Shown piece by piece: positions 8,784 to 30,942 of a stretch of 64,000 nt of DNA; the stretch's first letter is position 1; the number at the start of each line of letters is the position of its first letter. Location of the stretch: assembly GCA_020912385.1 (NCBI GenBank), contig CP087211.1:248001-312000 (forward strand). Reading direction: 5' to 3'. Below the pieces are notes generated by a model, which saw only the letters and a program-made list of their open reading frames with translations, was not told where the DNA came from and did not search any database. This DNA is from Neofusicoccum parvum. Taxonomy: Eukaryota > Ascomycota > Dothideomycetes > Botryosphaeriales > Botryosphaeriaceae. The translations under genes and the position numbers were made by a program.

Positions 8784-11700
8784 CTAAGCATACGTCCCGA
8801 TCCTCGGCCCAAAATACTCGCCAGACGGCAGCTTCAACCGCGTGCACGTCGAGCTCTCGCACCCCGAGTCCGGCGAGTTGCCCCACCAGTCAATCGCGTA
8901 GCCATGATACTCGACCGCGAAGAAAATGATAACGGCCGAGATAGCAATCGCCGTCGACAACGCCGCCGAAAGCACGTAGTTGTACTTGGCCCAGAAGTTG
9001 AGGTAGCGCCTGCGGATGTAGACCATGCTGAGCCAGCCGGGCAGGACGGCCGGCCACATGTACGCGATGTTGTACTTTAGGACGAAGTCAGTACCGGTAG
9101 GGTCTTTCTGATGAGGGGAGACAGCGGAGGACGTACAGGGGACCACAAGCTCCCGCCATTGAGAAGGGGGATCGGATGCGCACGACGGAACCAGTGGGTC
9201 TTGGGCAGCCGGCGCTGGATCAGGAAGAAGATGATTGGGACGGCGGCGCCGACGGGGAAGGCGGAGAGGAGCGCGGTGTACTGGCCGCCTTTGCCGAAGA
9301 CCTTGCGAGCGCCCATGCTACCGAACAGGACGGCGGCGGTGAAGTAGGTGTTGACGCCGGGGCAGGTGAATTTGTCTTTCTGATCACTGGGGTGGACGAG
9401 CAGGTTAGTGGACCGGGAGTACGAGGCGTTTGGACGGCTGGCTTACGATTCGCAGATGTCGTGGATGTTCCGCATCTGGAAGTTCATGACGCCGGTGCAG
9501 ACAAACGCCGATACCAACGTTGCCGCACACTGGGCCCAGAATGTGGTCCGAGGAGGAATCTTCACGTAGTGCGCAAGCTTCAGATCATTGGCGAACGCCA
9601 ATGCATGGGCGGTGGTGACATAACTGGGATTCGGGGTGAGCATGGGGAGTGTGGGGTACGTGCTAGCAGCTTACCCGTAGCATTTGAAAAAGTTCATTGC
9701 TAGAGCGTTGCCAGGCAGCCAGGCTCCGCCGATGAACTCCGCGAGATAGCTAATAGAATCGTTGGTCAGGGTAGGATAAGACATGGGCGGACGTTGAGCT
9801 TACTTGTACTCGACATCTATCCCAGTGGTTGCTTTGATGATTCCTGTAGGGATGACAAAGACAAGGGCGAGGCCGATACCAAAGAAAACGACACCAACAT
9901 TGGTCTGCGAGCTCACTCAGCCTTCGTTTCTCTCAGATAATGGAACAGACTACTCACGTAAGTTGGCCAGCCTGCTACAGCACCAACGCCGAGAACGATG
10001 GCAAAAACATTGAGTATGGCGTACCACCATTCAGGAACTGCAGCAGAAGTTAGCGAGGACCACAAAAATGAGGGAACACACATGCCTTCTTTGTACGCAG
10101 CCATCAACTTTGTATGAATATCCTTGAACTCTTCGGCCGTTTTCTTGTAGCCCCGGAAGAGACTGCGGAACCCCAACGCGATATCCTGGCGATGATACAT
10201 GATCGCGTAAGACACAGCCGCAGGATACACGGCGAACGCCCACCAGTACATAGTCAAACTGCTTGCTGCAAGGTAGACAGGCGAGTATGCTTGGTACTTC
10301 TCCTCGTCCAGCCATCCACGGTCGTCCAACACGGCAGAAACGTTGTAGGACTTGGCGTAATGATTGAACATCGAGTTCGTGTTGATAGGGAGGTAGCCAG
10401 TGTGATACGTGTTCGTGTAGTACAAGCCGATAAGTGTGATACCTCCAAGGAAGCAGCCGATAAAAGTGTTCAACGTGACGGCAAATGGAATGACCAGTGG
10501 ATCGATGTTGTGAGTGGCCACGTTCCAGTCAAAGGTAGGCAATGGATTGAACCCGAGGCCTTTCTTGACGCCGGTGATGGCCGTCAAGTTGAAGTTCTCT
10601 GGGGCTATCCACGCTATCCAGTTGAAAAGGCTAAGGGCGGCAAAAATGTAGTTCGGAAACCAGAAGTAAACGAACATCAACGCAAAGGCGTAGGAAAAAA
10701 GTCTGAACCTGGAAATGTTGTACAATCTCTTGAAAGGGCCGGGTATAGCATGATTTGTCTCTTGAAAACCAATATGTTAGTGTCAAAGTATGAGAATAGT
10801 AACGGAGAGGCCATACCGTTGTGTAGGGAGCTATTGAGAGCGATGGTGACCATTGTTTTCGGCCACAGACAGTATGACGGATAAACCAAGAACTTCCTAC
10901 AAAGCCCAGCCAACCCGTATCCTGAAATTGAAGCACATGTAAGTTTGCATTCCAAGAAATGCAGATAAGGACCATACCCATGAAATCCGTAGACAGAGCC
11001 AGCAATATCTGGTATGCAAAGGACCCGGCATATTTCTGATCGAAGTATCGGTCCAGAAACTGCGTAAAGATAATGTACCTTGAACTGGGCAGGGTCTTGC
11101 CTACACTCGCCATGATCGAAATAAGCATGTGCTCCTTCTTGTTGAACGGTCCGGGGTTCAGTCGGAGACGATATCCGAAAAAGGTGAAGGCCACGTCGGG
11201 GAGATAACGCTCCGCTGCCTTTCCAACCGGATAACTGAGCAACTGCACGACTGGTGCTTCAAGGAAAATCGACGGTTGCCGAACGCTAAAAAGCTGGTTG
11301 ACAAAGGCCAATAAGATAACAAATCCAAGGCCAATGACCCATGCGCGAATGGTTGAACACGGAAGTTCCGGGTCGTCATGATTATCTACCACAGCTCGGA
11401 CCTCGGCGTATGGACTGTTGGTTGTGAGGAGTGAAACTTCGAGCTTAGTTTCTTCGATGATCGAGGCGTGCTTTTCTGGAGCATCGGTGATTGAGTGGTC
11501 CTCCAAAAACTCATGTAGTCGATTAAGGGCTTCCCTGGGGAAGTTCGGATCATACTGGTGCTTTTCGAAAAGCTGACCAGCGAGCTATGAAGAGTCAGCA
11601 GTCGCATCAGATGCTCGAAGAGTTTGCAGATACTGACCTGCTTTGTCTCCTCCAAACTCAAATTTTGCGCGTACTCTTGGGCGGCAACAACCTCCTCCAC

Positions 11701-12783: not shown

Positions 12784-15700
12784 CTACTGGTATGATCTGG
12801 AGAAAGGTTGATCAGTAGAACCAACAGCACGCAATACTGAATTGAAATAATCCTCCCTCCATGCCTTCGAAGTTCTCTTCCTTCTCTTCATGTCTCTTGT
12901 AGGGCTTGGACTGTGCCTTCTTTTCCCGTCCGTGGGCACTTGAAGATGCGTCGCCTTCTCGACATCTCTGTGGGACATCTTCCGCCGAACATGTGTTAAA
13001 AGCCTTTCAGCCTCCATACCTGGTTCGTCATGCCCGTTCTCATGGGAGATCTTGATCACATCTTTCAAAAGCACCCGAGCAGCTTCATATCGGCCCGTTC
13101 GGTACAAACAGTCGGCAAGAATTAGTTCCGCCTCGCTCAGCTCGGAGTCTGAGGAGGCCTGGTGTCTGTGCTTGAGGAGTAAATCGCAAGCGCGGAATAG
13201 AGGTGCCAGTGCCGATTCGTAGTCTCCGTTCAGTATGTAGGAGTTCCCAAGGTTGCGTTCTGCTCTCGAGAGAAGTGGAGTCTTTTCGGATGGAATCAAC
13301 TCCACGGTGCGTTTTTGCAAGTCTATTGCATCTCCGAAACGATGGGCTTTCCCGTAGAAGATGGCCAGGTAGTGCCTCGTCATAAGCGTCAGATCATGCT
13401 TCTCGCGGCACGAATTTATTTGCTCGTGCAAGACATCTTCTAGTGTCATGATCGCTTGATGGTACCGGCCTTCCTCTCCGTAGAGGAACCCAAGAAAGCC
13501 CTTGTATGGTAGAATAAGGCGAGCGTGATCCGTCGGAGCTTTGTGAACGACACGACTTAATGATCGCATAGCCTCCTCGCGCATGCCACGTTCCAACATT
13601 ACTACAGCAAACATGGCTCGTGCGATCGAGACGTTGTGGGGTAGTATGTTCTGTCCGCTTTTGAGGAGTGTCAGGATGTTCTCAGCGTGGTGGAACTGGC
13701 CGGTACGAATGTAGGCTTTAGCGAGGGCAAGTTGCCAGAATCCCAAGGGCGTGGTCGAACTGTGAAGGTTTGCGTTCTGTTGGAGAAGCGAGATACATGT
13801 CTTGTGTGATGTTCGGATGTCTCGAGGGGGAATAGATCCTTTGTATAATGGAAGAAGTTCCTTGCTCGGCGTGGCGGGATCTGAGTCCAGAAGGTCAAAG
13901 ACATCATCCGCAATCTGATCCAAGTAGGGATCATCTGTTTGATACCCCGAATCCATCAGAGTTTGGACCAATTGACTCAGGATTCCCGCAAAGTGAGTCA
14001 AAAATCCCTGAGAGAAATTTTTGTAATGTTTGTCGAGAAGTTCGGAGCGCCAGCGAGACTGGAGAAAAGCGAACAGATGCATCCTAAGATGACTGGCATG
14101 CATGTATGATTTTCTGCCCCCTGAGGCCAATACGGAGCCGACAATAGCCCAAGATTCAACATGTTCCCTCGTCTTCTGTCGTCTACTCGCCCATTCCCGT
14201 ACAGAAGGATGAATTTTCAACTGGTCGTAGGTAATTGAGATGAATGAGAATGATGTTAGCAACTGCAGAGCGTCTTGAAAGGACGACAGGTCGCAGCTCT
14301 TTAGTATATCTTTTGCGTACGCCAGAGATCCATTCTCTAGTGAACCATGACCTGTCTCTCGGTTCCTGACGGACATCCTAGACGGGTAATGCTTCCAAGT
14401 GTCCTCCAAAAGACTTCCTGGAAAGGGGTCGCAAGGTAACGCGGATATGAGATTGAGAAGCCTCAAAGCTGCGTTTCCAGAACTACCGAACTTGGTTGCC
14501 AGGGCTTTTGCAGATACCTCATAAGTGGTGTGTGGCCTTAGATATGGGGGAATCTGGCGATGCTGCTGTTCATACTCAAACACATACTGCTCAAAGGCCA
14601 AGTGACATCTGGCGATACAGGCTCCAGCCTTTACGAGAGAATGAGTATGGTAGTCCAGCATAATAGCAACTCTCGATGCTGATTGTGCCTCCAGGGAACC
14701 GAGTGTGACTGGTCGATCGACAGCTCGGTGTAGGAGAGTGATTGAGTCAATCATTCCCAGATTCTTGAAATTCAGAAAGCCTACTGTGTTGTCGCGAGTA
14801 GCTTTCTGATGCTTCGAACTGAGAATGATTGATCCGTGTTGGCAGGGTGGAAAATATTTAGCGTAGTCGACATCGGGGTCATTCGCATTATCCAAGATCA
14901 GCAACCAATTCTCCTGAGTGTTGGCCATGCACTTCAGAGAATCATTCAAACGCCTAATGGTGAAACCGATTTTTCTGGTGATAGACATGAACCCAGCTTC
15001 CGCCAATTCATGAGTGCTCACATCAACCCAGAAGATTCCCCAAAATCTATGATTGTCAGCGCAGCCAACTTTCGCTGGTGAAGGTAACCTACTCTCCACG
15101 AAGTTCTTCTGCAATCTTTACGCATAGCTCGCTCTTACCTTGGCCCTCTACTCCAGTAACAACAAACCGCTTTTGGATATCAGTGGAAGACGGTGTTGAA
15201 TCCTTCAGCGCTTCTTTGACAGTCTTCAGTTCCCGAACGCGTCCAACAAAGTTGCAACAGGTCTGTCTCGGAACCATCCAGTGTCTGTCTCGCAGGCTTG
15301 TTTTCCCTTCCAAGAAATCAGCGCCTGCGTCAACAAAGGGAAGGAGGGACTGAGGTGAATGCGTACACGCTTTCCGAATTTCCAAAAGTTTTGGTGCTTC
15401 GTTTGCGAACTCTTGAATGCGTTGGGCAACAACCTTGAAATTGTCGTCGTTTCGATCGCGGAACTTGTTCATCAGACCGTGCCTGACATGCAATGGAGTG
15501 CGTTCGCCGCAATCTACACATGCCGCATCCTCATCAACGAGCTACGTTGGACGCGTGAGTGACAAGCTGATCAAGACGATATTCCATGAATCGGAGAAGA
15601 GTAGAGGACATACCAATTTTCGGATAGATGCTCGGCCCACGACTTCCTTGTACACCAATGTAGTTTGGGTTTCGTAAAAGCAATGGATAGGAAGAAATAA

Positions 15701-16574
15701 CCAGCGCTTGTTTGCAGTCTCGCAGAACTCTTGGAGAAGCTTTCGAAGGAGCTCGGATTTGCCATCGAGGTCTTTCACAAGGGAATCTGATGGTTCCTTG
15801 CCCAGAACACCATTGACATATATTTTCCACATTGCATCACTTGCAGATTTGCACCCCCGTAGAGGAGATGCGAGAAAAATGATGCCAACCGTTGCCTGAA
15901 GAAGAGGGCTGCACCGATGCTTAGCTTCTGCTGCCCGTTTGATGGCCTTGAGAATGCGCCTGTCAGTAACGCATACCACTGTTGAAGGCAACTTCACATA
16001 CTTGCATAAGTAGAATTCCACCGAAGCATGAGGCGATGAATATAATCGGCTTATGTACCGAGCCTCTCTGACAAAAGTTTTAGCCCGGAGCAGTGGTGCT
16101 GTCTTGAACCACCTACATTCTGCCTGTCTTGAAATATGACAGCGAGAAGCCTATCCGCTTGTCCCAGTATGGTGGCGACAGGTGCATTGCTGCTGTAGTT
16201 TGCGTTCCAATCGAGCGTGGAGATCCGAGCGTGGGGCACCATCGAAGGTAGCATGTCCGGATCGCTCAGCCAATTCACCGATCCTGAGCTTGGATCTCCT
16301 TCCTTCTTGTACGCTATCCATGTCTTTGGTGATTCAGTGTCCAGACCATGGATTGCGATAATGCTACCGAGGTATTAGCCATCAAACAAAACCCGTTGGG
16401 TTGTTTACTAACTCGAGTGATGTTTCATCGCTGGGGTTGGTGGGAAACACTTGCTTCAGGCCCAAGTGACGCTGAGTCTCCAGGGACTCCTATAATAAGA
16501 GACTTGTTAGCTCTTCAGCCTTGCGAATGGTTTGCGGTAAAGTGGGGGCATACTGAGGATCCCACACTTTTCAT
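12784..16574 (-). CDS. NLR-like STAND protein: alpha/beta-hydrolase-like domain, NTPase, TPRs
   Basis: A fungal NOD-like receptor of about 1140 residues, reconstructed over roughly eight exons from ATG 16574. The N-terminal domain resembles the SesB-type hydrolase: IIAIHGL, KPIIFIASCFGG, GIIFLASPLRG and HGLMNKF in the usual order. The NTPase has a P-loop (GVEGQGKSE, around 15125) and a Walker B-like WLLILDNAND (around 14890). The C-terminal half carries about six TPR-like repeats, for example LALAKAYIRTGQFHHAE and NLGNSYILNGDYESAL. A basic, NLS-like tail (KRRHSPSPTRDMKRRKR) follows. Relatives act in non-self recognition and heterokaryon incompatibility. The nucleophile Ser of the hydrolase motif is replaced by Cys. 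Exon 1 is only seven codons and depends on one inferred splice, so the extreme N-terminus is less sure. Confidence 0.82.
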
Positions 16575-18471: not shown

Positions 18472-19739
18472 TTATCTACTAAGTGGCCTTTCCTTCCAGA
18501 AGATTGTGCCCTCCATCAGTCTTCTGGCTGTACGAAACACTGTTGCGTCCATCACATTGCCGTCCTTGTCGAAGTTCGCTGAGACAAGAATCTTTCCACT
18601 ATTATGCCCAAGAGTGATTCCATCCGGATCGACAGGGTTCGAAGAGATATTCCTTTGGACAGTGGACCCCTTAGTCTTCGCAGAGGCAGCGAGTGCCATT
18701 GCTACGGTGATCGGAACAGCTCCATGCGCTTGCCCAACAGAAATCGCCCGGACAACAAGATCACAATCCTGCTCAGAGAAGTGCTGACCTGACAGAATCT
18801 TATGCGGCTGCGACGCAGACACCATGGCTATCTTTGGAATAGAGCCAGGTACCGAGTCCACGTGTGCGGCCAGTTTCATAGCCACTCCGGCTTGCCGCCT
18901 GATGGAGTCTAGGCGTTTCAGGAGAGTCGGATGTGCTTCAATGGAATCAGAAAGAATGGTACCCTCGACGCCCAGATCTAAGGCCTGAACGAAAACACAC
19001 GGGTTCCCAACGTCGATGCAAGTTGCTTCGATACCGTCAAAGACATCTGTCACCTTGCCGGTAGGTAGGAGCATCCCCGTCTTTGAGCCTCTGATAGAAG
19101 AACTTAGTATCATTGCAAAGAATGTACATATCATACTTACGATGGATCCAAGAAAGCCAGTTGAATCTTGGCAGCAGTCCCAGCAACCCCATCAATGGCA
19201 AAGTCTCCGGAGCTGGAAGCCTCTGATCCTTCGACGCAAAACTTAGCATGTATGACTTTTCCGGTGTTTGTATTGTGGATTCGAACGACGGCGTGACCGG
19301 TTTCAATGGGCTGGACCAACCCGCTGTCAATCGCGAAAGGGCCAACAGCACTGGTCATGTTCCCGCAGTTGCTTGAGAAGTCAACTTCGGAATCTTTGAC
19401 ACCGATGGACACGAATGTGTAGTCCACGTCTGCATCGCTGCGGCTCGACGGGCCCACGACGCATACTTTTGAAAGACTCGACACACCGCCGCCCATGCCG
19501 TCCAGCTGTCGACCATTGGGATCAGGGGATCCGATGACGCTGCGGAAGATGTCATCCCAGGCTTTCCGGTCCGCTGGCAGATCCTCCTGCCGGAACATCA
19601 CTGCTCGTGAAGTGCCGCCTCGGTAATACGCAGCCGGGAGTCGGTTCTGCGGTTTTAGCAGGAGGGCCGACTGGTGAAATAGTCGTGTTCCTGTGCAGAT
19701 TGGTGTGGTGTTCCGAGATAAGAGCCTGAATGCTGCCAT
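18472..19739 (-). CDS. PrpF-family isomerase/tautomerase (methylaconitate or 4-oxalomesaconate type)
   Basis: A 405-residue protein from two exons (19739-19141, 19090-18472). It belongs to the PrpF fold, whose members include 2-methylaconitate cis-trans isomerase, GalD 4-oxalomesaconate tautomerase and fungal aconitate-delta-isomerase (Adi1). Diagnostic parts are YYRGGTSRAVMF (about residue 39), DGMGGGVSSLSKV, the active-site block SSNCGNMTSAVGPFA with its Cys, and GSKTGMLLPTGK. The first 35 residues are basic with a QSALLL stretch and look like a mitochondrial targeting peptide. It lies downstream of the LigI-like gene on the same strand, with a perfect cluster palindrome 112 bp before its ATG. 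Which substrate it isomerises cannot be told from sequence. Confidence 0.85.
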
Positions 19740-19850: not shown

Positions 19851-19862
19851 CGGATGCATCCG
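19851..19862. promoter_or_regulatory. Cluster palindrome, PrpF-like promoter
   Basis: CGGATGCATCCG, a perfect palindrome with CGG and CCG half-sites six bases apart, 112 bp before the PrpF-like ATG. Predicted binding site of the Zn2Cys6 regulator at 28709-30799. Confidence 0.75.
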
Positions 19863-20172
19863 ATAGTTGACCCACCCAAATCTGAGTTGTGCAATCCGAC
19901 CATCAGACAGTGCAACAACATCGCTTCTATGATTTCAAGGTATCAATATGCTCCAGATAGAAAGCTTCTTTCTCCTACAAGTTCAGAGACTCATAGGTAC
20001 CTACAGAACCGTCTGATAATTACAATACCTCAATGAGCTGTCAAGTGCTTGTTGGGAGGCCACACTACCAAAGCGGCACACATTCGTCAATCTCAAAGTG
20101 ACTCAACTGAATGGCCATAATGTAGCAAAGCTACTGCATCTCCCATGGACATAACAGAGTAGCGTTATCAAA

Positions 20173-21289
20173 TCAGAAGTACAGCTTCGCCGGCGTGACA
20201 ACGGTCATTTCGTGCCACAACCTGGGCCCAACCCACTTCCTAATGTTTCTCAACACCGCTTCATTATCAATGATTCTGAACGGCTCTGGCACGTATCTTG
20301 TAGCCTCTGTCCTGTTTGATCCTGTGTGCGGCCAATCCGAGCCCCAGATCAGCTGTTGCGGAATCTCCTCCGCAAAATACCTAACCAGCGGCTCCAGATC
20401 GTCGTAACCACCGGTGGTGTGGTTTGATGAACGGTATAGTGCAGAGACCTTTACGAACACTTTCCCGCTTTTGGCCAGAGCCATGAGGGATGCAAAGCCG
20501 GGTTGTGCTGTGACGTCTTTGGTTCCCTCGGGCAGTTGGGAAAGCCCTTTCATGCCACCCTGGTGGTCCGCAATGACTTGAATCGGCAGGTCTTTGATGA
20601 TATCACTAATGTCTGCGCCAAATTTATCAGATGATTGTTACGAAACGATAGAAAATTTGGAAAACTTACAGTCCCAGCTTTCACCGGAAATGTACAGCTG
20701 GCATTTCCAATGCTTGAATCTTGCCACTCTATCCACAGTGCTCGTGATAGCCTTGCGTAAATCTTCATATGCGTCATCCGAGGTAGAAGCTTGGGTGTTG
20801 ATGCGGACGCCTCTCACACCGAGGACATCCATTTCATTTAGCTCGTCATCATGAACCTGCTCTGGATCGATGACCGCGATTGCACGTAGCAAGCTCTCCG
20901 GCTGGGAGTGGTTGCGGAGAAGATCCAGCACCAATGAATTGTCGGTTCCGTAAGTCGACGGCTGAACGAGGACAATGTTCTGCGGCGTATGCGTTACGGT
21001 GAGGTTGGAATTGAACGTAAGCAACTCCTGGTAAGATGCGGGTACAGGCGTATACGAGCGATCAGGCGAGTAGGGATATACTTCCGGGTCGAAGACGTGG
21101 ACATGAGTTTCCCATGAGTGCCGAGGCAGATGCCAGTCAACATCATCATAGGCCGTTGAGTGGCCAAGGCTGCCAAGTGTTAGTCTTGCTTTGACTATAT
21201 ACAGCGGATGCTTACCTCGAAGTTATCCCGACTGAGCCATTGATGTCAGGGATAAGGGATGGAATGGCTACTGAACTGACTGGTGCCAT
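20173..21289 (-). CDS. Amidohydrolase-2 protein, LigI-like (2-pyrone-4,6-dicarboxylate lactonase type)
   Basis: A 337-residue TIM-barrel hydrolase from three exons (21289-21216, 21169-20670, 20612-20173), all in phase. It follows the LigI pattern along its length: ETHVHVFDPEVYPYSPDRSY, NIVLVQPSTYGTDNS, RAIAVIDPEQV, GVRGVRIN, VIADHQGG, LIWGSDWPHTGS, and a C-terminal VTPAKLYF. The catalytic set expected for LigI (His-X-His, a later His, and Asp in SDWPH) is present. The stretch after GVRGVRIN differs from what I recall of LigI (an LKRL carboxylate-binding piece), so the lactone may not be PDC itself. LigI hydrolyses PDC to 4-oxalomesaconate, the substrate of PrpF-family GalD, which makes the pairing with the neighbouring PrpF-like gene notable. 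No signal peptide. Confidence 0.82.
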
Positions 21290-21465
21290 AGTGTCGTTTA
21301 CCTCATTTGAGTCATGGCCATGGCGTTGGCTCGACTGAAAAGATTTTCCACGTTGACTTGGCATTTCATGCAACCGAGGTCAGCCCCGCACGTATCTGCC
21401 AAGATGTTTACTCAATGGCAGTTCTTCTGTCTCTCATCCTATGTATGCTTAAGTATAAGCTTCTT

Positions 21466-21507
21466 CGGATCCATCCGCAGGACATATCCGGCGGCGGATG
21501 TTATCCG
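21466..21507. promoter_or_regulatory. Two cluster palindromes, LigI-like promoter
   Basis: CGGATCCATCCG at 21466-21477 and CGGAT-GTT-ATCCG at 21495-21507 (spacer of three), 177-218 bp before the LigI-like ATG. An extra half-site ATCCGGCGG lies between them. Confidence 0.7.
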
Positions 21508-21879
21508 AAAGGCTGGCAGCACCTTCCTTGTGGGGATAGTCATAGGCGCTGCAACGTTGTTGTATGGATGAATCTTTCGGGAGTTACCAACGCTCTTATG
21601 TTGAAGGCTAAACAATATTGATGATCGGAAATAGCTCCGATACAGGTTGGAGGTAATACGCTGTTCGTTAAGACGCATCGCTCATTCGAGAACCAATTTT
21701 GTAACACATCGCAATATATTGAGAATGAAGCATGACTGTATAGTTTCTCCCGAAACAGAGCGTTTTTCATGAGGCTCCTTGCTTGCTTGCTGTGGCACAG
21801 TGTATTGATAAAGCCGTGCCAAATTCCCTCCTCATCAAAATCATCATCCAGCATATCCTGTGGAATAAATAGACTTCTC

Positions 21880-23670
21880 TCATTCCAAATATTCAATTTT
21901 CTCAATTTCGTTCTTTTCTGAGATTTCTCTTGGGTACTTTGAGAAATTTCTGGAGCGAAGTAAGTGAAAGATCACCCAAGACCGAGTTCAAACTCACGTA
22001 GATGCTGTTGTGATTGGCTCCTTTGCACGAGCATACTTCCTCATTAGATACCACGGATGCTGGAAGAGCTCGTCAATATTCTCCAATGCCCTACCGGCTG
22101 TTTCCGGGACCATGACGAAAACATATACGATGGCGACCAGGCACCATACAGCGAAGAATACGAATGCGCCCCATTGGTTGAGTGAGTTCAGAAGTGAAGG
22201 TGTTGCCTTTGTGATTCCGAAGTAGAAGAGCCAGTGGAAGCACTGCGATAGTGATCCACCAAATGAACGGAGTCTGTTAGGCCAGAGTTCAGCTCCAAAG
22301 AGATAAGGAAGCGTATACAATCCTGGTAGTTGGTTAGCGTTGTCTGTCCCAGTGCGGCAGCTGGTCAAAGTCATCTGTGCACTTACCAACGGCCCATCCA
22401 AAAGCGTGTATGTAGATAGCTGCTATGGCGAAGTCGGAGGCTCCTTTCGGAACGCTGTCTTCGTCCCTTATAAAGAAGTTCAGATAGCCTGCGAGATAGC
22501 TGTGACATAGTATCTGCACAGTGATGCCAATGAACAAGGACTTCCTTCTGCCGACCACGTCGACAAAGAACAGCGATGCCGCAATGCAGCATACCAGCTT
22601 CACCATTGCATACAACCCAGAAGCGTAGACCTTGACATCTGTTGACTCAACGCCAACAATACCGAAGATCTCCGGCAAGTAGTTCGTGATCGCATTCGCA
22701 CCCGACAACTGTGCAAGGATATAGGCGACGACCACCAGCTGAACGCGACGGAGGTTCGAGCGGACGCAGAAGGTCTCGCGCAGAATGGAACCGTACCCAA
22801 GACCTCCAAACTCTTCGTTCTCGCGCGTGAGCTGATCTTTCATCTGGTCCCACTCCTCAAGGATGTACGGGTGGTCGGAATCCAGCCCACGGATGGTGAT
22901 CAATGTGGCCAGCGCCTCTTCCTGTTTCCCCCGTAGGCAGAGCCAACGAGGAGACTCGTAAAGGAAGAAAGACATGATGATTCCAAGGGCGGGAACGAAG
23001 CATTGGACGAAGAAAGGCGTCTGGTACTGCAAGTTCCTCGATGCCGGTACGTGACGGTCGCAACCGTACACGGTGAATATCCCTATCATCTGGGACGACA
23101 GCATGCAGACGTTGAACCAAAGCGTCATAAGTCCCCTTGTCGTAGCTGGTGCTATCTCAACGATGGCCATCGGACCAACGACCGTGCAGGCCCCAATACC
23201 TGCGCCAGCTACCAACCTGCCGACGTAGAGAGCAGGGAGATTCCCGTTCGAAAAGGTTTCAATGATGTTTCCGACGGCATAGATGAACATGTACAGCCGA
23301 TATGACCAGATGCGACCCAGCCTGTCGTTCAGGAGGAATGAAGCGAGAGCCCCAGCGCCTGCTGTGATGTTCACGAAGGATACGATGTTCGATATCTGTT
23401 CAGGGTTTCCTTTTGGTGTGATGTTGAACTCTCGTTGGAAGCTCTTCAGCTGAGTGATTGACGCCGTCGTACCCTCGTCCCATCCTACAGTGAGTCGTCA
23501 GTCCGTTTCAAAGGTTTCAACAGGAGAGGCCACGACGGACCTTTTGGCATCCCACACAAAGCGAACATGATGACGGTGAGAAGAAGGTTTCTGTTGTAGA
23601 GGCCTTTTGGTGAGGCCTTGATGCTAGCAAGATATTTCCCGAAGGGTGAGTTTGAGAAAGCGGACAGCAT
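21880..23670 (-). CDS. MFS transporter, sugar/quinate-permease type
   Basis: A 540-residue twelve-helix transporter from four exons (23670-23541, 23484-22387, 22322-21998, 21949-21880). Signatures of the sugar-porter branch are present: DRLGRIWSYR after helix 2, GRLVAGAGIGA, YESPRWLCLRGK, DVVGRRKSLF, and VPETAGRALENIDELF near the end. The last exon is short and adds a Lys/Glu-rich tail ending IEYLE. It is the only plasma-membrane protein in the cluster and presumably imports or exports its carboxylate or a precursor. Sequence alone does not give the substrate, and sugar-porter-fold proteins carry quinate and other acids as well as sugars. The cluster palindrome lies 194 bp before its ATG. Confidence 0.85.
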
Positions 23671-24339
23671 GATGACAATCTTGATAGAGAGTATCACTCA
23701 TACAAAGTGTTTCGGTGGCTGCAGCAGATGATTATAATGGAAGTTCTTTATTTATCAGGTATGTTGAACCAGACACAACTTGGTCACGGCTGGCTGCCGA
23801 TGCGTTTGCCACATCGCAACATGCGTTAATTCCCATTGGTGGCTTCAGACGCATGTCTCATGACGGATGTATCCGATATCTCTACCGAAGTTCCGAACTG
23901 CAAACTGGTGATGGCCTGATGAGAAGTCCGGAGAGAGTCCGTGGAAGTGCGGGGTAATAATAGTGGTCTCTAAGATGGGCCGTTGGTGTCATCCGCCATC
24001 TCTGGCTCCCGTCATTGGCAAGGTCAGAAGACTTTCACAGTCCAGTTACGGGTATCACGCCAAAACATAAAGCATTTGGTTCTATTTCTTATGCCAATGA
24101 CGTCCTTAGTTTCTCCTTCCACAGTCCTGGTTGAGTCATAATATTAACCTCAAAAAACTAGTTAATGACCATGTGCAGACAGAGACGCCCAGTAGAATTG
24201 CTGCAGGTCCACCGTCGGGGCTAAGATATCACTCAAGTAGGATGCATAATTGGAACAGTTCTGATAAGCAAAGCGTAAACTTCCGATCCTTACTTGCCAA
24301 AATAAATACAGGCTCCAGCATCTGATTCTGAGGTCGCTA
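23671..24339. other. Intergenic region, MFS promoter and aconitase 3' flank
   Basis: About 670 bases. The right-hand part is AT-rich and without coding signals. The MFS promoter, with its palindrome, occupies the left part. Confidence 0.55.
23864..23875. promoter_or_regulatory. Cluster palindrome, MFS promoter
   Basis: CGGATGTATCCG, 194 bp before the MFS ATG. Identical half-sites to the other copies, spacer GT. Confidence 0.72.
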
Positions 24340-26870
24340 TCAAATTGACTGGGTTGAGCCCCGCTGCTGCTGCGTCATCTGTGCCATCAGATTCAACGCA
24401 CTCCCTGCTTCGAAATACTCAATCTGCTCCTCGTTGAATGTGTGATCCAGCTTTGTCCGCCACGTGGATCCATCACTCCTCTTCACAAGCATCGTAATTG
24501 AGCGGCCAGGACGGAAATCGCTAAGACCAACCAAGCTGACGCGATCTTCCGCCTCGATTCGATCATAGTCCGCAAGGTCATTGAACGTGAGTGGCAGCAT
24601 CCCCTGCTTCTTCAAATTTGACTCATGGATGCGTGCAAATGACTTCGCGATGATCGCAACGCCATTCAGGAACCTTGGTTGAAGCGCGGCATGTTCCCTG
24701 GACGAGCCCTCACCGTAGTTGTGGTCTGCGATGACCACCCACTGCTGGTTGCGCTGCTTGTAGTCTTTCGCCGTGTCCGGAACCCCGGAGATCTCGCCAG
24801 TGAATACGTTCTTCACTTGATTTACTTTTTTGTTCGCAGCATTAACCGCACCAATAAGGGTGTTGTTGGAAATGTTCTCCAGGTGTCCGCGGTACCGAAA
24901 CCATGGACCTGCGGGTGTGATGTGGTCCGTTGTGCACTTGCCCTCGACTTTGATTAAGATGGGCAGGTCGACAAGGTCCTTCCCGTTCCAGGGCTTGAAC
25001 GGCTCCAAGCGCTGAATGCGATCTGATGTGGGGGAAACATCCACTGTAACAGACGATCGGTCTGATGGTGGTGCTGAGTAGACGTGGTCAGCGGAAATGT
25101 ATCCCTTTGGAGGCAATATTCCTGGTCGTGGAGGCTGAAATGTGAAAGGTCCGTCTGTTGTGTTTATGATGTCCGTAGCCGGGTCGAAATCAAGCGTCCC
25201 GGCGAAAGCTTTGGCTATGACAGTTTCTGGAGACGCCAAGAAGATACTTGTAGCCGGATTGTTATCCAGTCGGCCCGTAAAGTTGCGGTTGTAGGATGTT
25301 ACAATTGAGTTCTCTACTCCCTGTCCCGACTTTAGCGTGTGATGCCATGTTGGAAATGTATTCTGCTGTCCTACCTTTTCCATGTCTTGGCGATCCCAAG
25401 AACCGCAACAGGGCCCACAAGCATTCGCAAGTAGAGTCGCTCCCGCATCCTCAAAGATGGACAGAACTCCTGAATCTTCCAATGTGGCTCTAGTTTGCTC
25501 ACTGCCAGGGGACAGGTAGAGGGGTGCTTTCGGCTTCAGGCCGGCGTCAATGGCTTGCTTTGCCAGAGCGGCTGCGCGGCTCATGTCTTCGAATGAGGAA
25601 TTGGTACAAGACCCAATCAAGCCAGCACTGACCCGCTTTGGCCAGGTGTTCCTTTCCACTTCTTTCTTGAAAGCCGATGTTGGTGTGGCAAGATCTGGTG
25701 TTGCAGGCCCATTGATGAACGGCTCCAGCTCGGAGAGGTTGATATTGATGACTTGGTCATACTCTGCACCAGCATCCGCGCTTAGATTCTGAGTCCAATG
25801 ATCTGCCTCACTTTTGAGATACGATCGATCAGTAGCGTCAAGATATGCGGCCATGGACGAAGTGTACGGGAATATGGATGTTGTCGCTCCAGTCTCAGCT
25901 CCCATGTTGGAAATCGTGGCCATTCCAGTAGCGGAAAGTGAATGGACACCATCTCCGAAATACTCTATAATCGCTCCTGTTGCGCCCTTGACAGTCAAGT
26001 CCCCAGCAAGCTTGAGAATGACATCTGCAAAGTCAGCAAGACTGTTCGAACTGGTGAAAAGTCACGACACACCTTTGGGTGAAGCCCATCCCGACAACTT
26101 CCCCGTAAGATTTACCCCAATGACCTTTGGCGTCTTCAATTCCCACGCAAGTCCGGCCATAACGTCCACCGCGTCTGCTCCCCCAACGCCTATAGCTGCC
26201 ATGCCAAGGCCGCCGGCGTTTGGCGTGTGAGAGTCAGTGCCTATCATAAGGCCTCCTGGGTACGCGTAGTTTTCAAGGACGATCTGATGGATGATACCGG
26301 CACCAGGTCTCCAGAATCCAGCCCCATACCTTTTGCATACTTGCTGGAGAAAGTTGTACACCTCCAGGTTGGTCGAATTAGCCATCACCAGATCTGGCTC
26401 GCTTCCCTCCTTCGCGACAACCAAATGATCGCAGTGTACGGTGGTGGGAACTGCAACAGCATCTAGGTTGGCTGACATGAATTGGATGAGCGCCATCTGT
26501 GCTGTCGCATCCTGGCATGCAATCCTCGTAGGCCGTAGCTTGAGGTAAGACTGGCCGCGGCGGATGTCAGCCTCTTCAACGTTATCCAAATGCCCGTAAA
26601 GCACTTTTTCCGAGTATGTGAGCGGACGCTTCAATCTGGTTGTGAACATTAGCCCTGTATTGCGAGATGTGTGGGAAATCCATACTTTTCTCTGACTGAG
26701 CGGATTTTCGCGTCCACACCCGTATAGTCAATGAAAGACTGTTGCTCATAGCGGCTCATAGGCACTCTGGCCGTCGATGCGCTCACGGATGCAAACGATT
26801 GAATGCGCGTATAAGAACAGCGCAATGGGCTGCAGCTCAGCCGCTTGACACATGGAAAGCGTGTCGACAT
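24340..26870 (-). CDS. Aconitase-family hydratase, mitochondrial paralogue
   Basis: A 792-residue protein from four exons (26870-26686, 26635-26073, 26024-25375, 25320-24340). It follows mitochondrial aconitase over its whole length: [39 protein letters not shown]-like [24 protein letters not shown] and [10 protein letters not shown]. The three cysteines that hold the [4Fe-4S] cluster (one in GSCTNSS, two in CGPC) are kept, as is the active-site Ser-Arg of SSREH. A basic N-terminal region of about 45 residues looks like a mitochondrial presequence. The third intron (25321-25374, 54 bp) is a multiple of three without stops and could be misread as coding; removing it restores the family alignment. 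It is likely a cluster-specific paralogue rather than the housekeeping enzyme. It could act on citrate/aconitate, 2-methylcitrate or 4-oxalomesaconate. Confidence 0.85.
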
Positions 26871-27034
26871 TGGGAGACCTGGAATTGTGACAAGAATGAT
26901 GTGCTGCTTTGCACGTAAATGCGGAGGATACACCTCGCTTATCAACATCGGAATTGCCTTCGCCAATGCTGCTATCACGGATAACGTCAGCACCGGGGGA
27001 TGAACGAATTTCGGAAGGTTGGCTTAGTTTCGGT

Positions 27035-27106
27035 CACATATGATTGGAAGGCGGATACATCCGCCTCATTTCTCGCGGCAAGGCATCTCAGACCCACATA
27101 TGATTG
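27035..27106. repeat. 12-bp direct repeat flanking the aconitase palindrome
   Basis: CACATATGATTG occurs at 27035-27046 and again at 27095-27106, on either side of the palindrome at 27052-27063. It may be a second regulatory element of this promoter, or chance. Confidence 0.5.
27052..27063. promoter_or_regulatory. Cluster palindrome, aconitase promoter
   Basis: CGGATACATCCG, 182 bp before the aconitase-paralogue ATG, in the gap between that gene and the carrier. Confidence 0.72.
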
Positions 27107-27242
27107 TAGCCTGGAACAATGTGCTTGACAGTCCATATTGCCGCAGGTGTTGGGTGCAATCAATGCCTGGATATGATATTGGTATTTACTGGAAGCGTGT
27201 CGGGCACAACGTATCGCCACGGTCTATTGGCCAGCACACTTC

Positions 27243-28429
27243 TTATTTCGATCCGAAGCTCTCACGAACCGCATCTCCAAGGCCAACCATGCACACAGTA
27301 GCCCACGCAGCAACTCCAATCCGAGGAACGACACCTCGAAAGAAGCCCCGAACACCATTCTCTCTCCAGATGAGCCGGGCAGTCGACAACATTGTCGGCC
27401 TGCCCACCGCTTCCGTACCCTTCACCGCCTGCATATCCACCCGAATCACCTACAGATCCCACTGAGCATCAGCAAGCGCACGAAAAAGAAAACCCCCTCC
27501 CCTCCGTTCCCATCCACCACACTCACCTCAAACGGCTGATTCCAACAACTCACCGCCCCGCCCACCACCGCCGCGCCCACCCTCTCCGCAACCCCCAACC
27601 GCTCCCCCGGCCCCTTGCCCCGCACCCTCCGAATCGGCGCCTCCGCCGCCCGCGCGCCACCCATCCGCGACGCCCAGCCCGACACCTGGCGCAGCGCGAC
27701 GGCATTGACGCCCCTCGTGACGCCGCGGACGCCCTGGCCGCGGACGATGCGCGCAAACGTCGCCAGCGTGCCCGGCACCTCTCTCCCCGCCGCCGCGGTC
27801 TTGCTGCGCGTCACCTCGACCGTCTTCATGCACGTCGTCACGCCCATGACCAGGTAGGCCTGGGCGGCGCCGCCGGCCAGGCCGCCGAGCGCGGCGGCGG
27901 CAGTGGGGGAGAGGGCGAGCGAGTGGCGGGCGCGGTGGTCGATTTCCGAGGCGGTGAGGATGAGGATGGCGCCTTTGGTGGAGGCTTCGAGCCAGGCCTG
28001 CGTTGTCGGGGAGGTGTTAGTGAGGGTGTGAGGGGTGGGGCGGGGGCGGGGGGCGGGCGTGCCCATGGGATCAGGCCTTGGTACAAGCCTGCGATGCGTC
28101 CGCGGGTCCAGAGGTGGCGGACAGCGGACGAGAGAGGGGCGTTGCGGTTGGCGGATACCTGGGCGGGTGTTAGGGGGAATGGGCGTTTTGCTGGGCTGGG
28201 GCGTCTTTGGTACATAGGTTTTGATGTTTTCGAGGGGCTGCCCGAGCGTGGTGACTGTGCAAGAGGCGGGTGAGCGAATTCGTCGATCAGGAGCATAGGA
28301 CCAGAAGCTACCTTGGAAGATGTTCATTCCAGCTCCAATGAGAAGATTACCCCATGTAATCTTTTTCTTCTGTACCGCTTGTAATGTGTTTGATGCATGT
28401 TGAGTTTTGGACATTTCAAGTGTTGCCAT
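27243..28429 (-). CDS. Mitochondrial citrate/2-oxoglutarate carrier, YHM2 type
   Basis: A 310-residue mitochondrial carrier from five exons (28429-28312, 28254-28214, 28158-28063, 27997-27527, 27449-27243). It follows yeast Yhm2 closely in pattern: VTTLGQPLENIKT, GLYQGLIPWAWLEASTKGA, AYLVMGVTTCMKTVEVTR, GVNAVALRQ, WNQPFEVIRVDMQ and RGVVPRIGVAAW. Yhm2 exchanges citrate for 2-oxoglutarate across the inner membrane. A carrier of that type suits a cluster whose aconitase paralogue and isomerase both carry targeting-like N-termini. The third intron appears to use a GC donor. Another candidate upstream start (TTG-frame) is ignored because the ATG at 28429 lies right after a CAG that may end a leader intron. 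Confidence 0.85.
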
Positions 28430-28582
28430 CTGAGCAGTGTTGGAAGGGAATGTGGACAAAGTGGAGAGCTTGCCGTCGCTGGGATATCCAAATTTATGAT
28501 TTCAAAAATCTAAATCCTGGAATCCAGCAAATTTCAGGATATAGGTACTCTTTCATGAGCGCTTGAGGGTGGGATTGTCTCT

Positions 28583-28594
28583 CGGAAGCATCCG
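28583..28594. promoter_or_regulatory. Degenerate cluster palindrome, carrier promoter
   Basis: CGGAAGCATCCG, one mismatch from the consensus CGGAT-N2-ATCCG, 154 bp before the carrier ATG. Both CGG and CCG half-sites are intact. Confidence 0.55.
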
Positions 28595-28708
28595 TCGACG
28601 TTCGCCAGGCGTCGGGAACTGCGTAGCTGCGCCCGCTCGGTCCACTCACTTAGCACGCTTCAGTCGCCAGTCAGGACAGTCCGGCCTGCAGAATAAATTT
28701 GATTTTAC

Positions 28709-30799
28709 TCAGTGGAAAAGACTATCGAAATCCGGCAGCATGTCCAAGTTGTCAAAGAACGGAAGGCCGAGATCCACACCGTTAAATGGGCGCGTCTGCT
28801 CTGCCGAGTTCCCAAAAGCTGCCAGAGAAGAGACCACATGAGATTCTCGAGTTCCGAACCAGTCCATGTAATCAGACGTGATCTGATCGGAATACTGCTT
28901 TTCTCCGCCTGCCGATGGGACTTCTCCCGACGCGGTCCCGTTTGGCGAATCGAATAAAGCTACAGAGGCACTCCCAAGGCGGTCTATAATGTCGTGGCAT
29001 CGTGCTGCCAGAGGCCAGTACTCCGCCATTACCTCGAAGAGGGCGAGACATGACGCCACGTTTGACTTTGCTACCCGCTTGGTGGTACTCCTGCGAATGT
29101 CTGGGCTGACCCACAAGGTGTACAACATTGTGATGCTGGCCATGAAAAGCGAGTGAAGAGCAATCCAAGTATAGCTTATCTTGTTTTTTGCGTACAACGA
29201 AGAGTACGAGCTTATGAGACTGATTGCGGCGTCGGCGCAAATTTGCAGAGCTCCAAGGGTGGCGGCGGGGAAAGCCGGAGATGGCCGATAGAGAAGTAGA
29301 AGAGAGTGGGAGTAAGCAATCTGGAACCATTCGCTCGATTGGAAGGTAACATAGGTCGGGTTTGGATAACGGGGAGCCTGGGCAATCCACTCATCAAGTT
29401 CACTGCGGATGGCTGTCCGATGAGATTCCAGATCGTTGGAGGCGATACTTGAAAGATATGCAGGATAGATGGTATCCTGTATCCGGGATTGTAGCTGACG
29501 GATTTTGACAATGTGGTTGAAGGTGGACATGTCAAGGTGATCCGGTGGCCGTGTCTGCGGCGCACCAATAGCGGAGATTTCATCATCCCGTAACGGCTCC
29601 GGAAGAGGTACGTTGATATCAATATCTCGCAAGGCGAAAGGCCGGCCCAAGGCCATTGATACATTGCGGTCCAATATGTAAGCACACCAGAAAACTCTCT
29701 TCCTCATTTCTGAACCAAGCAGGTCACACGGCTGTTTGACAGGAACTCGATGCAGGCCAAGGTCGACGGCCAACCGCATAGCTTGCCCAGCGACATGCCA
29801 CGCATTTGCACTGTGTTCCTCGTGTATTGCAAAGTCAGCAACAAGGCACAGGCCCTGGACAGTTTCCAGATTGTCCGCTTTCATAAGCCCGTTGAGGTGG
29901 ATAAGTGATGCTTTGTGGAAGAAATCCAGGTGCTGGTCACCCAAGTCTGAGGTTTGCCGCCGTAGATCCATTGCACCCAAAGCGAAGATCATAAATGTGA
30001 GAAACAAAGACGCTCCATCGGCCTCGTGTTTCAGAGCCATGACTGGCGTGAAATGATTCTTCAGAAAGGTTTCCCGGTGTATGACAGGAAGAGCTGGCCA
30101 TCGATGGGTGAAGTATGCATTCTGAAGTTGGTCTGCCAACTCAGGCGCTGGAAGGCCAGCGGGTGAAGATGCTGCCGATGGCGAGGCGGTCGATCCGCGA
30201 TCACCCACACGCATTCTTAGACTGTCGCGAGACGGTCCGTGTTCCTGCTTGTAGTCCGCTTGGGTGAGGACTGCCTGGACAATGTTTCCAAAGAAAGATC
30301 CGCTCGAGTCGCCAACATATTTCATTTCGGAGGTGACCTCGCGGGGGACAAGATTCATGTTTTCTGCAAAGCCGTCTGCGGCCTCGTTGGGAGACTGCTG
30401 TTGGGTATCGAGCCCCCGAGGCCTCGCATTATCTTCTGCCCTGGCTCGACCTCGCAGCAGCTGAGACTCTTGTTCCAACTCCAGGATCCGGGCATTCAAA
30501 CGTTTCACATCGGCCTCGAGGTCGTCGACGTACCCGCGCGGGTATTCGCGGTACGTCAGCCGGTCAAGGACAACGCAAGGCACGCCAGCTCGCTTGCACA
30601 GCGAGCATTCGGGGAGCTTCCCGTCGCACTGGAGCGCGTCAAAAATGCCACACGGCGCTGGTGAAGATCAGCATACCTTGTTTTTCCTTTTGCGGCAGCG
30701 TTCACAGGCTATCTGCACGCGCTGCAGGCCGGGTCTGTGCTTCCGTCGTGCTATCGGCGCATCCGACGCAGCACGTGGCGTCTGCTCCGTCGATGACAT
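28709..30799 (-). CDS. Zn2Cys6 transcription factor, candidate pathway regulator
   Basis: A 680-residue Gal4-type regulator from two exons (30799-30677, 30628-28709). The zinc cluster spans the splice junction and has spacing C-x2-C-x6-C-x6-C-x2-C-x6-C (CERCRKRKNKCDGKLPEC, then SLCKRAGVPC). Next come a linker and a leucine-rich dimerisation coil (DDLEADVKRLNARILELEQE). The middle is a fungal-specific transcription factor domain with AWHVAGQAMRLAVDLGLHR and RKRVFWCAYILDRNVSMALG. The C-terminus is acidic and aromatic (DMLPDFDSLFH), plausible as an activation segment. Its own promoter has two perfect palindromes, and the same element recurs before the other cluster genes, so it is the likely pathway regulator with autoregulation. 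Confidence 0.88.
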
Positions 30800-30911
30800 G
30801 GGGTTCGGATAGAAGAGGCGATTCCAAGCAAAAGCTTTTGCGGGTGAGAAGTGTGGGTGGGTCTGCATCCAAAGCCAGTCGGGAGCAATACATTGTTGGC
30901 GGCGGACGCAT

Positions 30912-30942
30912 CGGATACATCCGACGCAAGCGGATGCATCCG
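30912..30942. promoter_or_regulatory. Two cluster palindromes, regulator promoter
   Basis: CGGATACATCCG at 30912-30923 and CGGATGCATCCG at 30931-30942, their starts 19 bp apart (about two helical turns), 113-143 bp before the regulator ATG. This suggests autoregulation. Confidence 0.75.

What the first reader, a model, noticed from the sequence alone, without database searches (positions are those of the whole stretch)
19851..30942. Shared palindrome CGGAT-N2/3-ATCCG in the promoters of a six-gene cluster
Seven perfect copies lie 110-220 bp before the ATGs of the PrpF-like gene (19851), LigI-like gene (21466, 21495), MFS gene (23864), aconitase paralogue (27052) and Zn2Cys6 regulator (30912, 30931). 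A one-mismatch copy precedes the carrier gene (28583). Six of the seven have a 2-bp spacer and one has 3 bp. I saw no intact copy elsewhere in the 64 kb. Inverted CGG/CCG half-sites are the classical target of Zn2Cys6 dimers, and the cluster encodes such a factor. The sequence alone therefore gives a predicted regulator, its site, its targets and the cluster borders.
Basis: partly seen in the sequence, partly recalled or inferred. Interest (0 to 1): 0.88.

Follow-up and report, generated by a model that had tools for sequence, protein, structure and literature searches.

The report
Zinc-cluster regulon for tricarboxylate metabolism
Six neighbouring genes of a plant-associated fungus share a rare palindrome in their promoters that fits the expected DNA target of the regulator encoded beside them, so the genes probably form one co-regulated pathway that feeds an aconitate-like acid, or its lactone, into mitochondrial metabolism.

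Summary
CGGAT-N2-ATCCG occurs six times in the 64 kb (0.04 expected), each copy 112-194 bp before a start codon. A one-mismatch copy precedes the sixth gene and an N3 copy the LigI-like gene. The 44-Mb genome has 47 exact N2 sites: six here, 41 scattered (reversed control 34). The cluster stands out; the scattered sites look like background.

The link to the regulator gains independent support. Its zinc cluster and linker align without gaps to yeast Ppr1 (1PYI, E 2e-12). Ppr1 is reported to bind CGGN6CCG (PMC11534201 passage), the spacing found here. Binding, and motif conservation in other fungi, could not be tested.

The enzymes are a PrpF-family isomerase, a LigI-like lactonase, a sugar-porter-family MFS, a mitochondrial-type aconitase (21 of 22 recalled active-site residues kept) and a mitochondrial carrier. 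I read the cluster as uptake and mitochondrial catabolism of a tricarboxylate such as trans-aconitate, or a lactone leading to one; the substrate is unproven. A diverged paralogous cluster lies elsewhere in the genome, without this motif in its promoters. Relatives of regulator, LigI and PrpF share contigs in other fungi. New member of a known kind.

The parts
18472..19739 (-). PrpF-family isomerase gene; exons 19739-19141 and 19090-18472 (405 aa); first 33 residues lack acidic residues, mitochondrial-presequence-like
   Evidence: gene model; Pfam PF04303 E 7e-58 and 3e-41 on the two exon frames; PDB best 3g7k 3-methylitaconate isomerase E 6e-74; 99% identical to a Neofusicoccum parvum DUF453 protein
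19851..19862 (.). CGGATGCATCCG, 112 bp before the PrpF ATG
20173..21289 (-). LigI-like amidohydrolase/lactonase gene; exons 21289-21216, 21169-20670, 20612-20173 (337 aa), no obvious presequence
   Evidence: gene model; PF04909; PDB best 4d8l LigI E 5e-19
21466..21477 (.). CGGATCCATCCG, 177 bp before the LigI-like ATG
21495..21507 (.). CGGATGTTATCCG, N3 spacer, 206 bp before the LigI-like ATG; not above chance by itself
21994..23670 (-). MFS transporter of the sugar-porter family; exons 23670-23541, 23484-22387, 22322-21994 (518 aa)
   Evidence: gene model; PF00083 E 3e-66; PDB best GLUT5 4ybq E 4e-26
23864..23875 (.). CGGATGTATCCG, 194 bp before the MFS ATG
24340..26870 (-). mitochondrial-type aconitase paralogue; exons 26870-26686, 26635-26073, 26024-24340 (810 aa), presequence-like N terminus (first 41 residues lack acidic residues)
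   Evidence: gene model; PF00330/PF00694; 1aco E 8e-298; 60% identical to bovine aconitase, 21 of 22 listed active-site residues kept
27052..27063 (.). CGGATACATCCG, 182 bp before the aconitase ATG
27243..28429 (-). mitochondrial carrier gene; exons 28429-28312, 28254-28214, 28158-28063, 27997-27527, 27449-27243 (310 aa); one intron modelled as GC-AG
   Evidence: gene model; spliced protein PF00153 E 9e-23, 80.3 bits against cut-off 22.3; PDB best uncoupling proteins E 1e-7
28583..28594 (.). CGGAAGCATCCG, one mismatch, 154 bp before the carrier ATG
28709..30799 (-). Zn2Cys6 regulator gene; exons 30799-30677 and 30628-28709 (680 aa); intron inside the zinc cluster
   Evidence: gene model; spliced protein PF00172 E 2e-10 and PF04082 E 5e-32; best PDB match Ppr1 1pyi E 2e-12 without gaps
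30912..30923 (.). CGGATACATCCG, 113 bp before the regulator ATG
30931..30942 (.). CGGATGCATCCG, 132 bp before the regulator ATG

Best explanation
The six genes are a pathway-specific, self-regulated regulon. The Zn2Cys6 protein at 28709-30799 binds as a Ppr1-type homodimer to CGG-AT-NN-AT-CCG (CGG-N6-CCG) about 110-210 bp before each gene, its own included, and probably activates them together. The products probably take up a tricarboxylic acid or its lactone (MFS), open a lactone in the cytosol (LigI-like enzyme), carry the acid into mitochondria (carrier), convert a trans or shifted double bond to the cis-aconitate form (PrpF-family isomerase) and hydrate it (aconitase) for the TCA cycle. 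Shown: motif positions, rarity, gene families, Ppr1-like DNA-binding region, recurring gene association. Inferred: binding, activation, mitochondrial location, uptake direction, substrate.
For: Six exact copies against 0.04 expected, and 6 of 47 genomic copies in 11 kb. Each of the six genes has a site 112-206 bp before its ATG, the carrier's being a one-mismatch copy. Look-elsewhere control. The regulator aligns gaplessly to Ppr1 (1PYI) through the linker, which in this class sets half-site spacing (recalled); Ppr1 site CGGN6CCG (PMC11534201 passage). Of the first 79 regulator hits, 38 show the same zinc-cluster spacing in their first 200 residues and 17 of those also a linker of the same length and form. 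Aconitase active site kept. PrpF-family Adi1 of Ustilago maydis interconverts cis- and trans-aconitate (PMC4720413 passages). 13 of 65 regulator relatives share a contig length with a listed LigI-like and/or PrpF relative; for the 54 on contigs over 5 kb, shifted lengths give 0.02. Neighbouring tags such as PFICI_09503/09504 and EG329_011382/011381. A diverged paralogous cluster MFS-regulator-LigI-aconitase lies at C2:2468487-2477760.
Against: No binding or expression data. Motif conservation in other species not tested. The carrier promoter has only a mismatch copy. The paralogous cluster, with a 30% identical regulator, has no CGGATNNATCCG in its promoters; it has one CGGAGTGCTCCG and one CGGACTACTCCG, and CGGAGNNCTCCG is not enriched in the genome (62 against control 67). 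Of the 13 contig-sharing regulators, three (P0054, P0060, P0063) lack the Ppr1-like linker and four (P0010, P0018, P0026, P0030) show no zinc cluster in the protein given. PrpF and LigI-like proteins fall below the curated cut-offs of the named equivalogs, so the reactions are uncertain. Among 80 bacterial LigI-like loci (kept of 574 relatives; many with short flanks) none had a PrpF match and 5 had an aconitase-family match.
Confidence: 0.65

Rival explanations
1. The palindrome is the target of another zinc-cluster factor encoded elsewhere; the cluster's own regulator controls the genes indirectly or binds another site.
For: CGG-N6-CCG is shared by several zinc-cluster factors (Ppr1; UaY recalled), and the genome encodes many relatives: 68 matching places to the regulator at E <= 0.001, some of them pieces of one gene.
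Against: Two sites precede the regulator itself and the sites track exactly the genes linked to it. Its closest solved relative has the matching half-site spacing.
Confidence: 0.17
2. The cluster is biosynthetic, as in Ustilago itaconate production: aconitate leaves the mitochondrion through the carrier, PrpF makes trans-aconitate, the MFS exports it.
For: Same parts list in part: PrpF-family Adi1, mitochondrial carrier Mtt1, MFS Itp1 (PMC4720413 passages).
Against: No gene like Tad1 (carboxymuconate-lactonizing family) among the six and a different regulator type (Ria1 is helix-loop-helix). The PrpF here has a presequence-like N terminus, whereas Adi1 is cytosolic. The MFS is of the sugar-porter family, often uptake by proton symport (recalled). 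An extra aconitase and a LigI-like lactonase are not needed for export.
Confidence: 0.2
3. The cluster is a fungal analogue of the bacterial lower gallate/protocatechuate 4,5 pathway: 2-pyrone-4,6-dicarboxylate opened by the LigI-like enzyme, 4-oxalomesaconate isomerised by the PrpF-family enzyme (as LigU/GalD), then hydrated or oxidatively decarboxylated to aconitate.
For: LigI is the nearest solved relative. The PrpF protein scores highest in NCBIfam against 4-oxalomesaconate tautomerase (319 bits). A perfect site lies 70-106 bp before the two in-frame ATGs of an RraA-like gene, the family that includes the CHA aldolase. Old work cited in PMC10512348 (passages) reports cis- and trans-aconitic acid from gallate in Aspergillus niger.
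Against: Below the equivalog cut-off (440 bits). In the PDB the PrpF protein is nearer to 3-methylitaconate and methylaconitate isomerases than to LigU. The LigI residue recalled as Arg130 is not conserved. No ring-cleavage gene among the six. The RraA-like protein reads T where the recalled aldolase motif wants E/D. In A. niger and A. nidulans gallate is now thought to go through tetrahydroxybenzene (PMC12388069 passages).
Confidence: 0.15
4. Chance or compositional artefact.
For: 41 other copies exist in the genome, close to the reversed control of 34.
Against: Six copies in 11 kb, each in a promoter at 112-194 bp.
Confidence: 0.01

Closest known systems
Ppr1 (S. cerevisiae, PDB 1PYI) and the Ppr1/UaY group of Zn2Cys6 regulators (UaY recalled)
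   Same: gapless alignment from zinc cluster through linker; inverted CGG half-sites six bases apart
   Different: inner bases AT-NN-AT; targets are tricarboxylate-type genes, not pyrimidine or purine genes; overall sequence diverged
Ustilago maydis itaconate cluster (adi1, tad1, mtt1, itp1, ria1)
   Same: PrpF-family isomerase, mitochondrial carrier, MFS and a regulator in one cluster
   Different: no Tad1-like, P450 or helix-loop-helix gene among the six; extra aconitase and LigI-like lactonase; PrpF appears mitochondrial
Bacterial LigI-LigU-LigJ-LigK / GalBCD pathway (recalled)
   Same: LigI-like amidohydrolase with a PrpF-family isomerase
   Different: no LigJ/GalB or dioxygenase among the six genes; aconitase and mitochondrial carrier instead; eukaryotic
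Methylcitrate route with AcnD and PrpF (Shewanella; abstract of PMC5690661 in the listing)
   Same: aconitase-family enzyme plus PrpF
   Different: aconitase is of the mitochondrial type, PrpF below the TIGR02334 cut-off, no other methylcitrate-cycle gene among the six

Membership tests
Zn2Cys6 regulator, Ppr1 type | CX2CX6CX6CX2CX6C zinc cluster | tested here: met
   spliced protein; PF00172 E 2e-10
Zn2Cys6 regulator, Ppr1 type | Linker of Ppr1 length leading into a dimerisation region | tested here: met
   ungapped match of residues 29-111 to 1pyi; dimerisation itself not tested
Zn2Cys6 regulator, Ppr1 type | Fungal_trans regulatory domain | tested here: met
   PF04082 E 5e-32
Zn2Cys6 regulator, Ppr1 type | Binds CGG-N6-CCG | not testable with these tools
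   a site of that form is enriched at its neighbours; binding itself is not shown
LigI (2-pyrone-4,6-dicarboxylate hydrolase) | Amidohydrolase fold with HxH and SDWPH metal/catalytic motifs | tested here: met
LigI (2-pyrone-4,6-dicarboxylate hydrolase) | Substrate-binding arginines (Arg124 and Arg130 recalled, from no call) | tested here: not met
   Arg124 aligns with Arg; Arg130 aligns with Ser
PrpF 2-methylaconitate isomerase (TIGR02334) | score over 440.55 bits | tested here: not met
   289 bits; the Pfam PrpF superfamily cut-off is met
4-oxalomesaconate tautomerase (NF033377) | score over 440 bits | tested here: not met
   319 bits
4-sulfomuconolactone hydrolase (NF042924) | score over 500 bits | tested here: not met
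   LigI-like protein 114 bits
Mitochondrial aconitase | Fe-S cysteines and substrate residues | tested here: met
   21 of 22 positions of a recalled list identical to bovine; Ser571 is Thr
Ustilago-type itaconate cluster | trans-aconitate decarboxylase Tad1 in the cluster | tested here: not met
   none of the six genes is of that family; definition from passages of PMC4720413

The most novel reading that the evidence does not exclude
A eukaryotic route in which an aromatic-derived lactone or keto-tricarboxylate (from gallate or tannin breakdown) is opened by a LigI-like enzyme, becomes trans-aconitate and enters the TCA cycle through a PrpF isomerase and a dedicated mitochondrial aconitase, under one CGG-N6-CCG regulator that also reaches a distant RraA-like gene. 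This would give genes to the 1965 report, cited in PMC10512348, of aconitic acids from gallate in Aspergillus niger.
Probability: 0.12. Interest if true: 0.75.

Novelty: new member of a known kind. Interest (0 to 1): 0.48.

Why it matters
It links an uncharacterised zinc-cluster regulator to a concrete site and a concrete gene set from sequence alone, in a plant-associated fungus. It points to a fungal tricarboxylate (aconitate or lactone) utilisation cluster that I did not find described in the papers searched. trans-Aconitate is described as toxic and as an inhibitor of aconitase (passages in PMC4720413 and PMC6320622), so a mitochondrial isomerase with a dedicated aconitase is a testable solution to that problem. 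A diverged paralogous cluster in the same genome offers a natural comparison of how site and regulator change together.

Tried and rejected
Motif in the paralogous C2 cluster: no CGGATNNATCCG in its promoters; the only copy nearby (C2:2468855) lies inside the MFS match. The CGGAGTGCTCCG found there is not enriched in the genome (62 against control 67).

A third cluster (C2 PrpF 1328514, MFS 1339318, regulator 1344849) was considered and dropped: the genes spread over 17 kb, that PrpF sits beside a frame that I take by eye for GrpE, and no shared CGG/CCG palindrome was seen in the pieces read.

Bacterial context of LigI-like genes: 80 loci kept of 574 relatives, many with short flanks; PrpF match in 0 of 80, aconitase-family match in 5 of 80. 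Of 10 neighbouring frames scanned from eight loci, three were GntR regulators, and one each an HpcH/HpaI aldolase, an Ldh_2 dehydrogenase, an MFS, a 2-hydroxyacid dehydrogenase and an aconitase; two had no family. It does not fix the substrate.

The other 41 N2 sites: at least one neighbouring frame was scanned by Pfam for 36 of 41; L013, L014, L038, L039 and L041 were not. Most frames had no family; others had unrelated ones (for example KH, EH, TCP-1 chaperonin, two P450s, an amino acid permease, a sugar-transporter piece, TPR, Zn_clus, DUF1932, DUF2306). Two looked relevant. The RraA-like one is kept as a lead. The tannase one (C4:1495010) was dropped because only 15 bases lie between the site and the probable ATG and the family has about 14 places in the genome by my grouping of 24 matches. 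Having looked at some 40 frames for anything relevant, the RraA match is suggestive only. My coding classifier was too weak to sort sites into promoter and coding and I do not use its count.


Full report
What was checked. The window is 64 kb of a 43.99-Mb fungal genome in 18 contigs (C6:248001-312000). The PrpF protein is 99% identical to a Neofusicoccum parvum entry, so the source is that species or a very close one. The best database hits of the regulator and LigI-like protein are only 72% (Lasiodiplodia) and 70% (Diplodia) identical. Six genes, all on the minus strand, lie between 18472 and 30799 (gene models; Pfam).

The motif. CGGATNNATCCG has six exact copies (0.04 expected), plus one copy with a single mismatch before the carrier gene and one N3 copy before the LigI-like gene. 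Start-codon distances are 112 (PrpF), 177 and 206 for N3 (LigI-like), 194 (MFS), 182 (aconitase), 154 for the mismatch copy (carrier) and 113/132 bp (regulator). A position matrix built from the seven N2 sites ranks them as the seven best 12-mers of the window, 17.5-20.7 bits against 13.4 for the next; this is partly circular, since the matrix was made from them. A less biased check counts all 5-mer palindromes with spacers 0-12: CGGAT/N2 has six copies, CGGCG/N1 also six, and 20 simulated windows do not exceed four; in the six 250-bp promoters CGGAT/N2 is in 5 of 6 genes and no other palindrome is in more than two.

The genome. There are 47 exact N2 sites, 41 of them outside the cluster; the reversed control pattern has 34. 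The N3 form has 27 against 15. The scattered N2 sites are thus near background, and the cluster holds 6 of 47 copies in 0.025% of the genome.

The regulator. The spliced zinc cluster reads CERCRKRKNKCDGKLPECSLCKRAGVPC. Among solved structures the best match is Ppr1 (1PYI, E 2e-12), aligned without a gap over residues 29-111, which includes the linker; Hap1/Cyp1, Leu3, Lac9, Gal4 and Put3 score lower. In this protein class the linker and dimerisation region set the half-site spacing (recalled). A passage states that Ppr1 binds CGGN6CCG in both S. cerevisiae and Candida albicans (PMC11534201). The window's site is CGG-N6-CCG. Of the first 79 regulator hits, 38 show the strict zinc-cluster spacing in their first 200 residues and 17 of those also a linker of the same length and form, DR(L/T)(T/S)-x4-(P/A)R(G/D/S); a group including the Aspergillus hits has another linker.

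Recurring association. The LigI and PrpF lists were cut at 120 of 2764 and 120 of 7937 hits, so this is a lower bound. Against it: some contigs are megabases long, so sharing is not always proximity; three of the 13 (P0054, P0060, P0063) have the other linker, and four (P0010, P0018, P0026, P0030) show no zinc cluster in the protein as given. Consecutive or near-consecutive locus tags (PFICI_09503/09504, EG329_011382/011381, PAC_02215/02211, OPT61_g7284/g7288) and an Aspergillus mulundensis model that fuses regulator and amidohydrolase (P0062) show neighbours in those cases.

A paralogous cluster. On C2 an MFS (2468487, 29% identity), a regulator (2470813, 30%), a LigI-like gene (2473649, 34%) and an aconitase (2475343-2477760, 46-73% by piece, 52% for my hand-joined frames) lie within 10 kb. 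So regulator, MFS, LigI-like enzyme and aconitase occur together twice in this genome. Its promoters lack CGGATNNATCCG but have CGGAGTGCTCCG between regulator and LigI-like gene and CGGACTACTCCG before the MFS. The first pattern is not enriched in the genome; whether these are the paralogue's sites is open.

The chemistry. The aconitase is of the mitochondrial type (1aco, E 8e-298) with 21 of 22 recalled active-site residues kept, so its substrate should be citrate, cis-aconitate or isocitrate, or very near these. The PrpF-family protein is nearest to 3-methylitaconate isomerase in the PDB and below the cut-offs for both named equivalogs. PrpF-family Adi1 converts cis- to trans-aconitate and back (PMC4720413 passages). 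PrpF and aconitase have N termini without acidic residues over their first 33 and 41 residues, consistent with mitochondrial import (sequence). The LigI-like enzyme is of the lactonase type but lacks one LigI arginine recalled as substrate-binding. The MFS is of the sugar-porter family and the carrier is a mitochondrial carrier. Together these favour uptake and mitochondrial catabolism of a tricarboxylate or its lactone over export; this is inference.

Distant targets. Of the 41 other sites, one (C5:2096936, in the top-scoring form CGGATGCATCCG) lies 70 and 106 bp before the two in-frame ATGs of an RraA-like gene; an ATG nearer to the site is out of that frame. RraA-like proteins include the CHA aldolase that ends the bacterial gallate and protocatechuate 4,5 pathways (PMC5065237 passages); only two RraA-like places were found in this genome, a lower bound. 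The recalled metal motif reads RDLET, with T where E/D is expected, so the aldolase role is doubtful. A tannase gene also has a site, but only 15 bases before its probable ATG. I treat the first as a lead and the second as chance.

Literature. Papers were searched. Passages only were read of PMC4720413, PMC10512348, PMC12388069, PMC6320622, PMC11534201 and PMC5065237; PMC5690661 was seen in a listing. No paper found in those searches describes this site or, as far as titles, abstracts and passages show, this gene set.

Verdict. The kind is known: an autoregulated zinc-cluster-controlled metabolic gene cluster. What is new is the specific regulator-site-target assignment and a gene set that points to aconitate or lactone catabolism.

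Noticed in passing
C2:2468487-2477760 of the same genome (L013, L063, L064, L067): Diverged paralogous cluster MFS-regulator-LigI-aconitase, with CGGAGTGCTCCG at 2473314 and CGGACTACTCCG at 2470105 in its promoters.
   Followed up: partly
C5:2096936 (L022:2037-2048): Perfect CGGATGCATCCG 70 and 106 bp before the two in-frame ATGs of an RraA-like gene, possibly a target in trans.
   Followed up: partly
C4:1495010 (L016:2011-2022): CGGATCTATCCG 15 bases before the probable ATG of a tannase-family gene; probably chance.
   Followed up: yes
L096:7359-9983 and 10001-10846: In Bosea sp. an aconitase-family gene lies directly before a LigI-like gene, a bacterial echo of the fungal pairing.
   Followed up: partly
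C2:1328514-1329617, C6:2154909-2156166: Two further PrpF-family loci; the first has a presequence-like N terminus and lies beside a frame that looks like GrpE by eye.
   Followed up: partly
window 12784-16374: Minus-strand frames beside the cluster: the part 12784-15117 has TPR repeats; the upstream part looks by eye like a P-loop NTPase but matched no Pfam family.
   Followed up: partly
P0053 and P0062: Database proteins that carry the regulator sequence with a HET domain or an amidohydrolase domain; probably gene-model fusions, the second reflecting regulator-LigI adjacency.
   Followed up: no
Only the PrpF protein has a near-identical Neofusicoccum parvum entry; the regulator and LigI-like protein have none in the listed hits, perhaps because these intron-bearing genes are unannotated or modelled differently there.
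   Followed up: no
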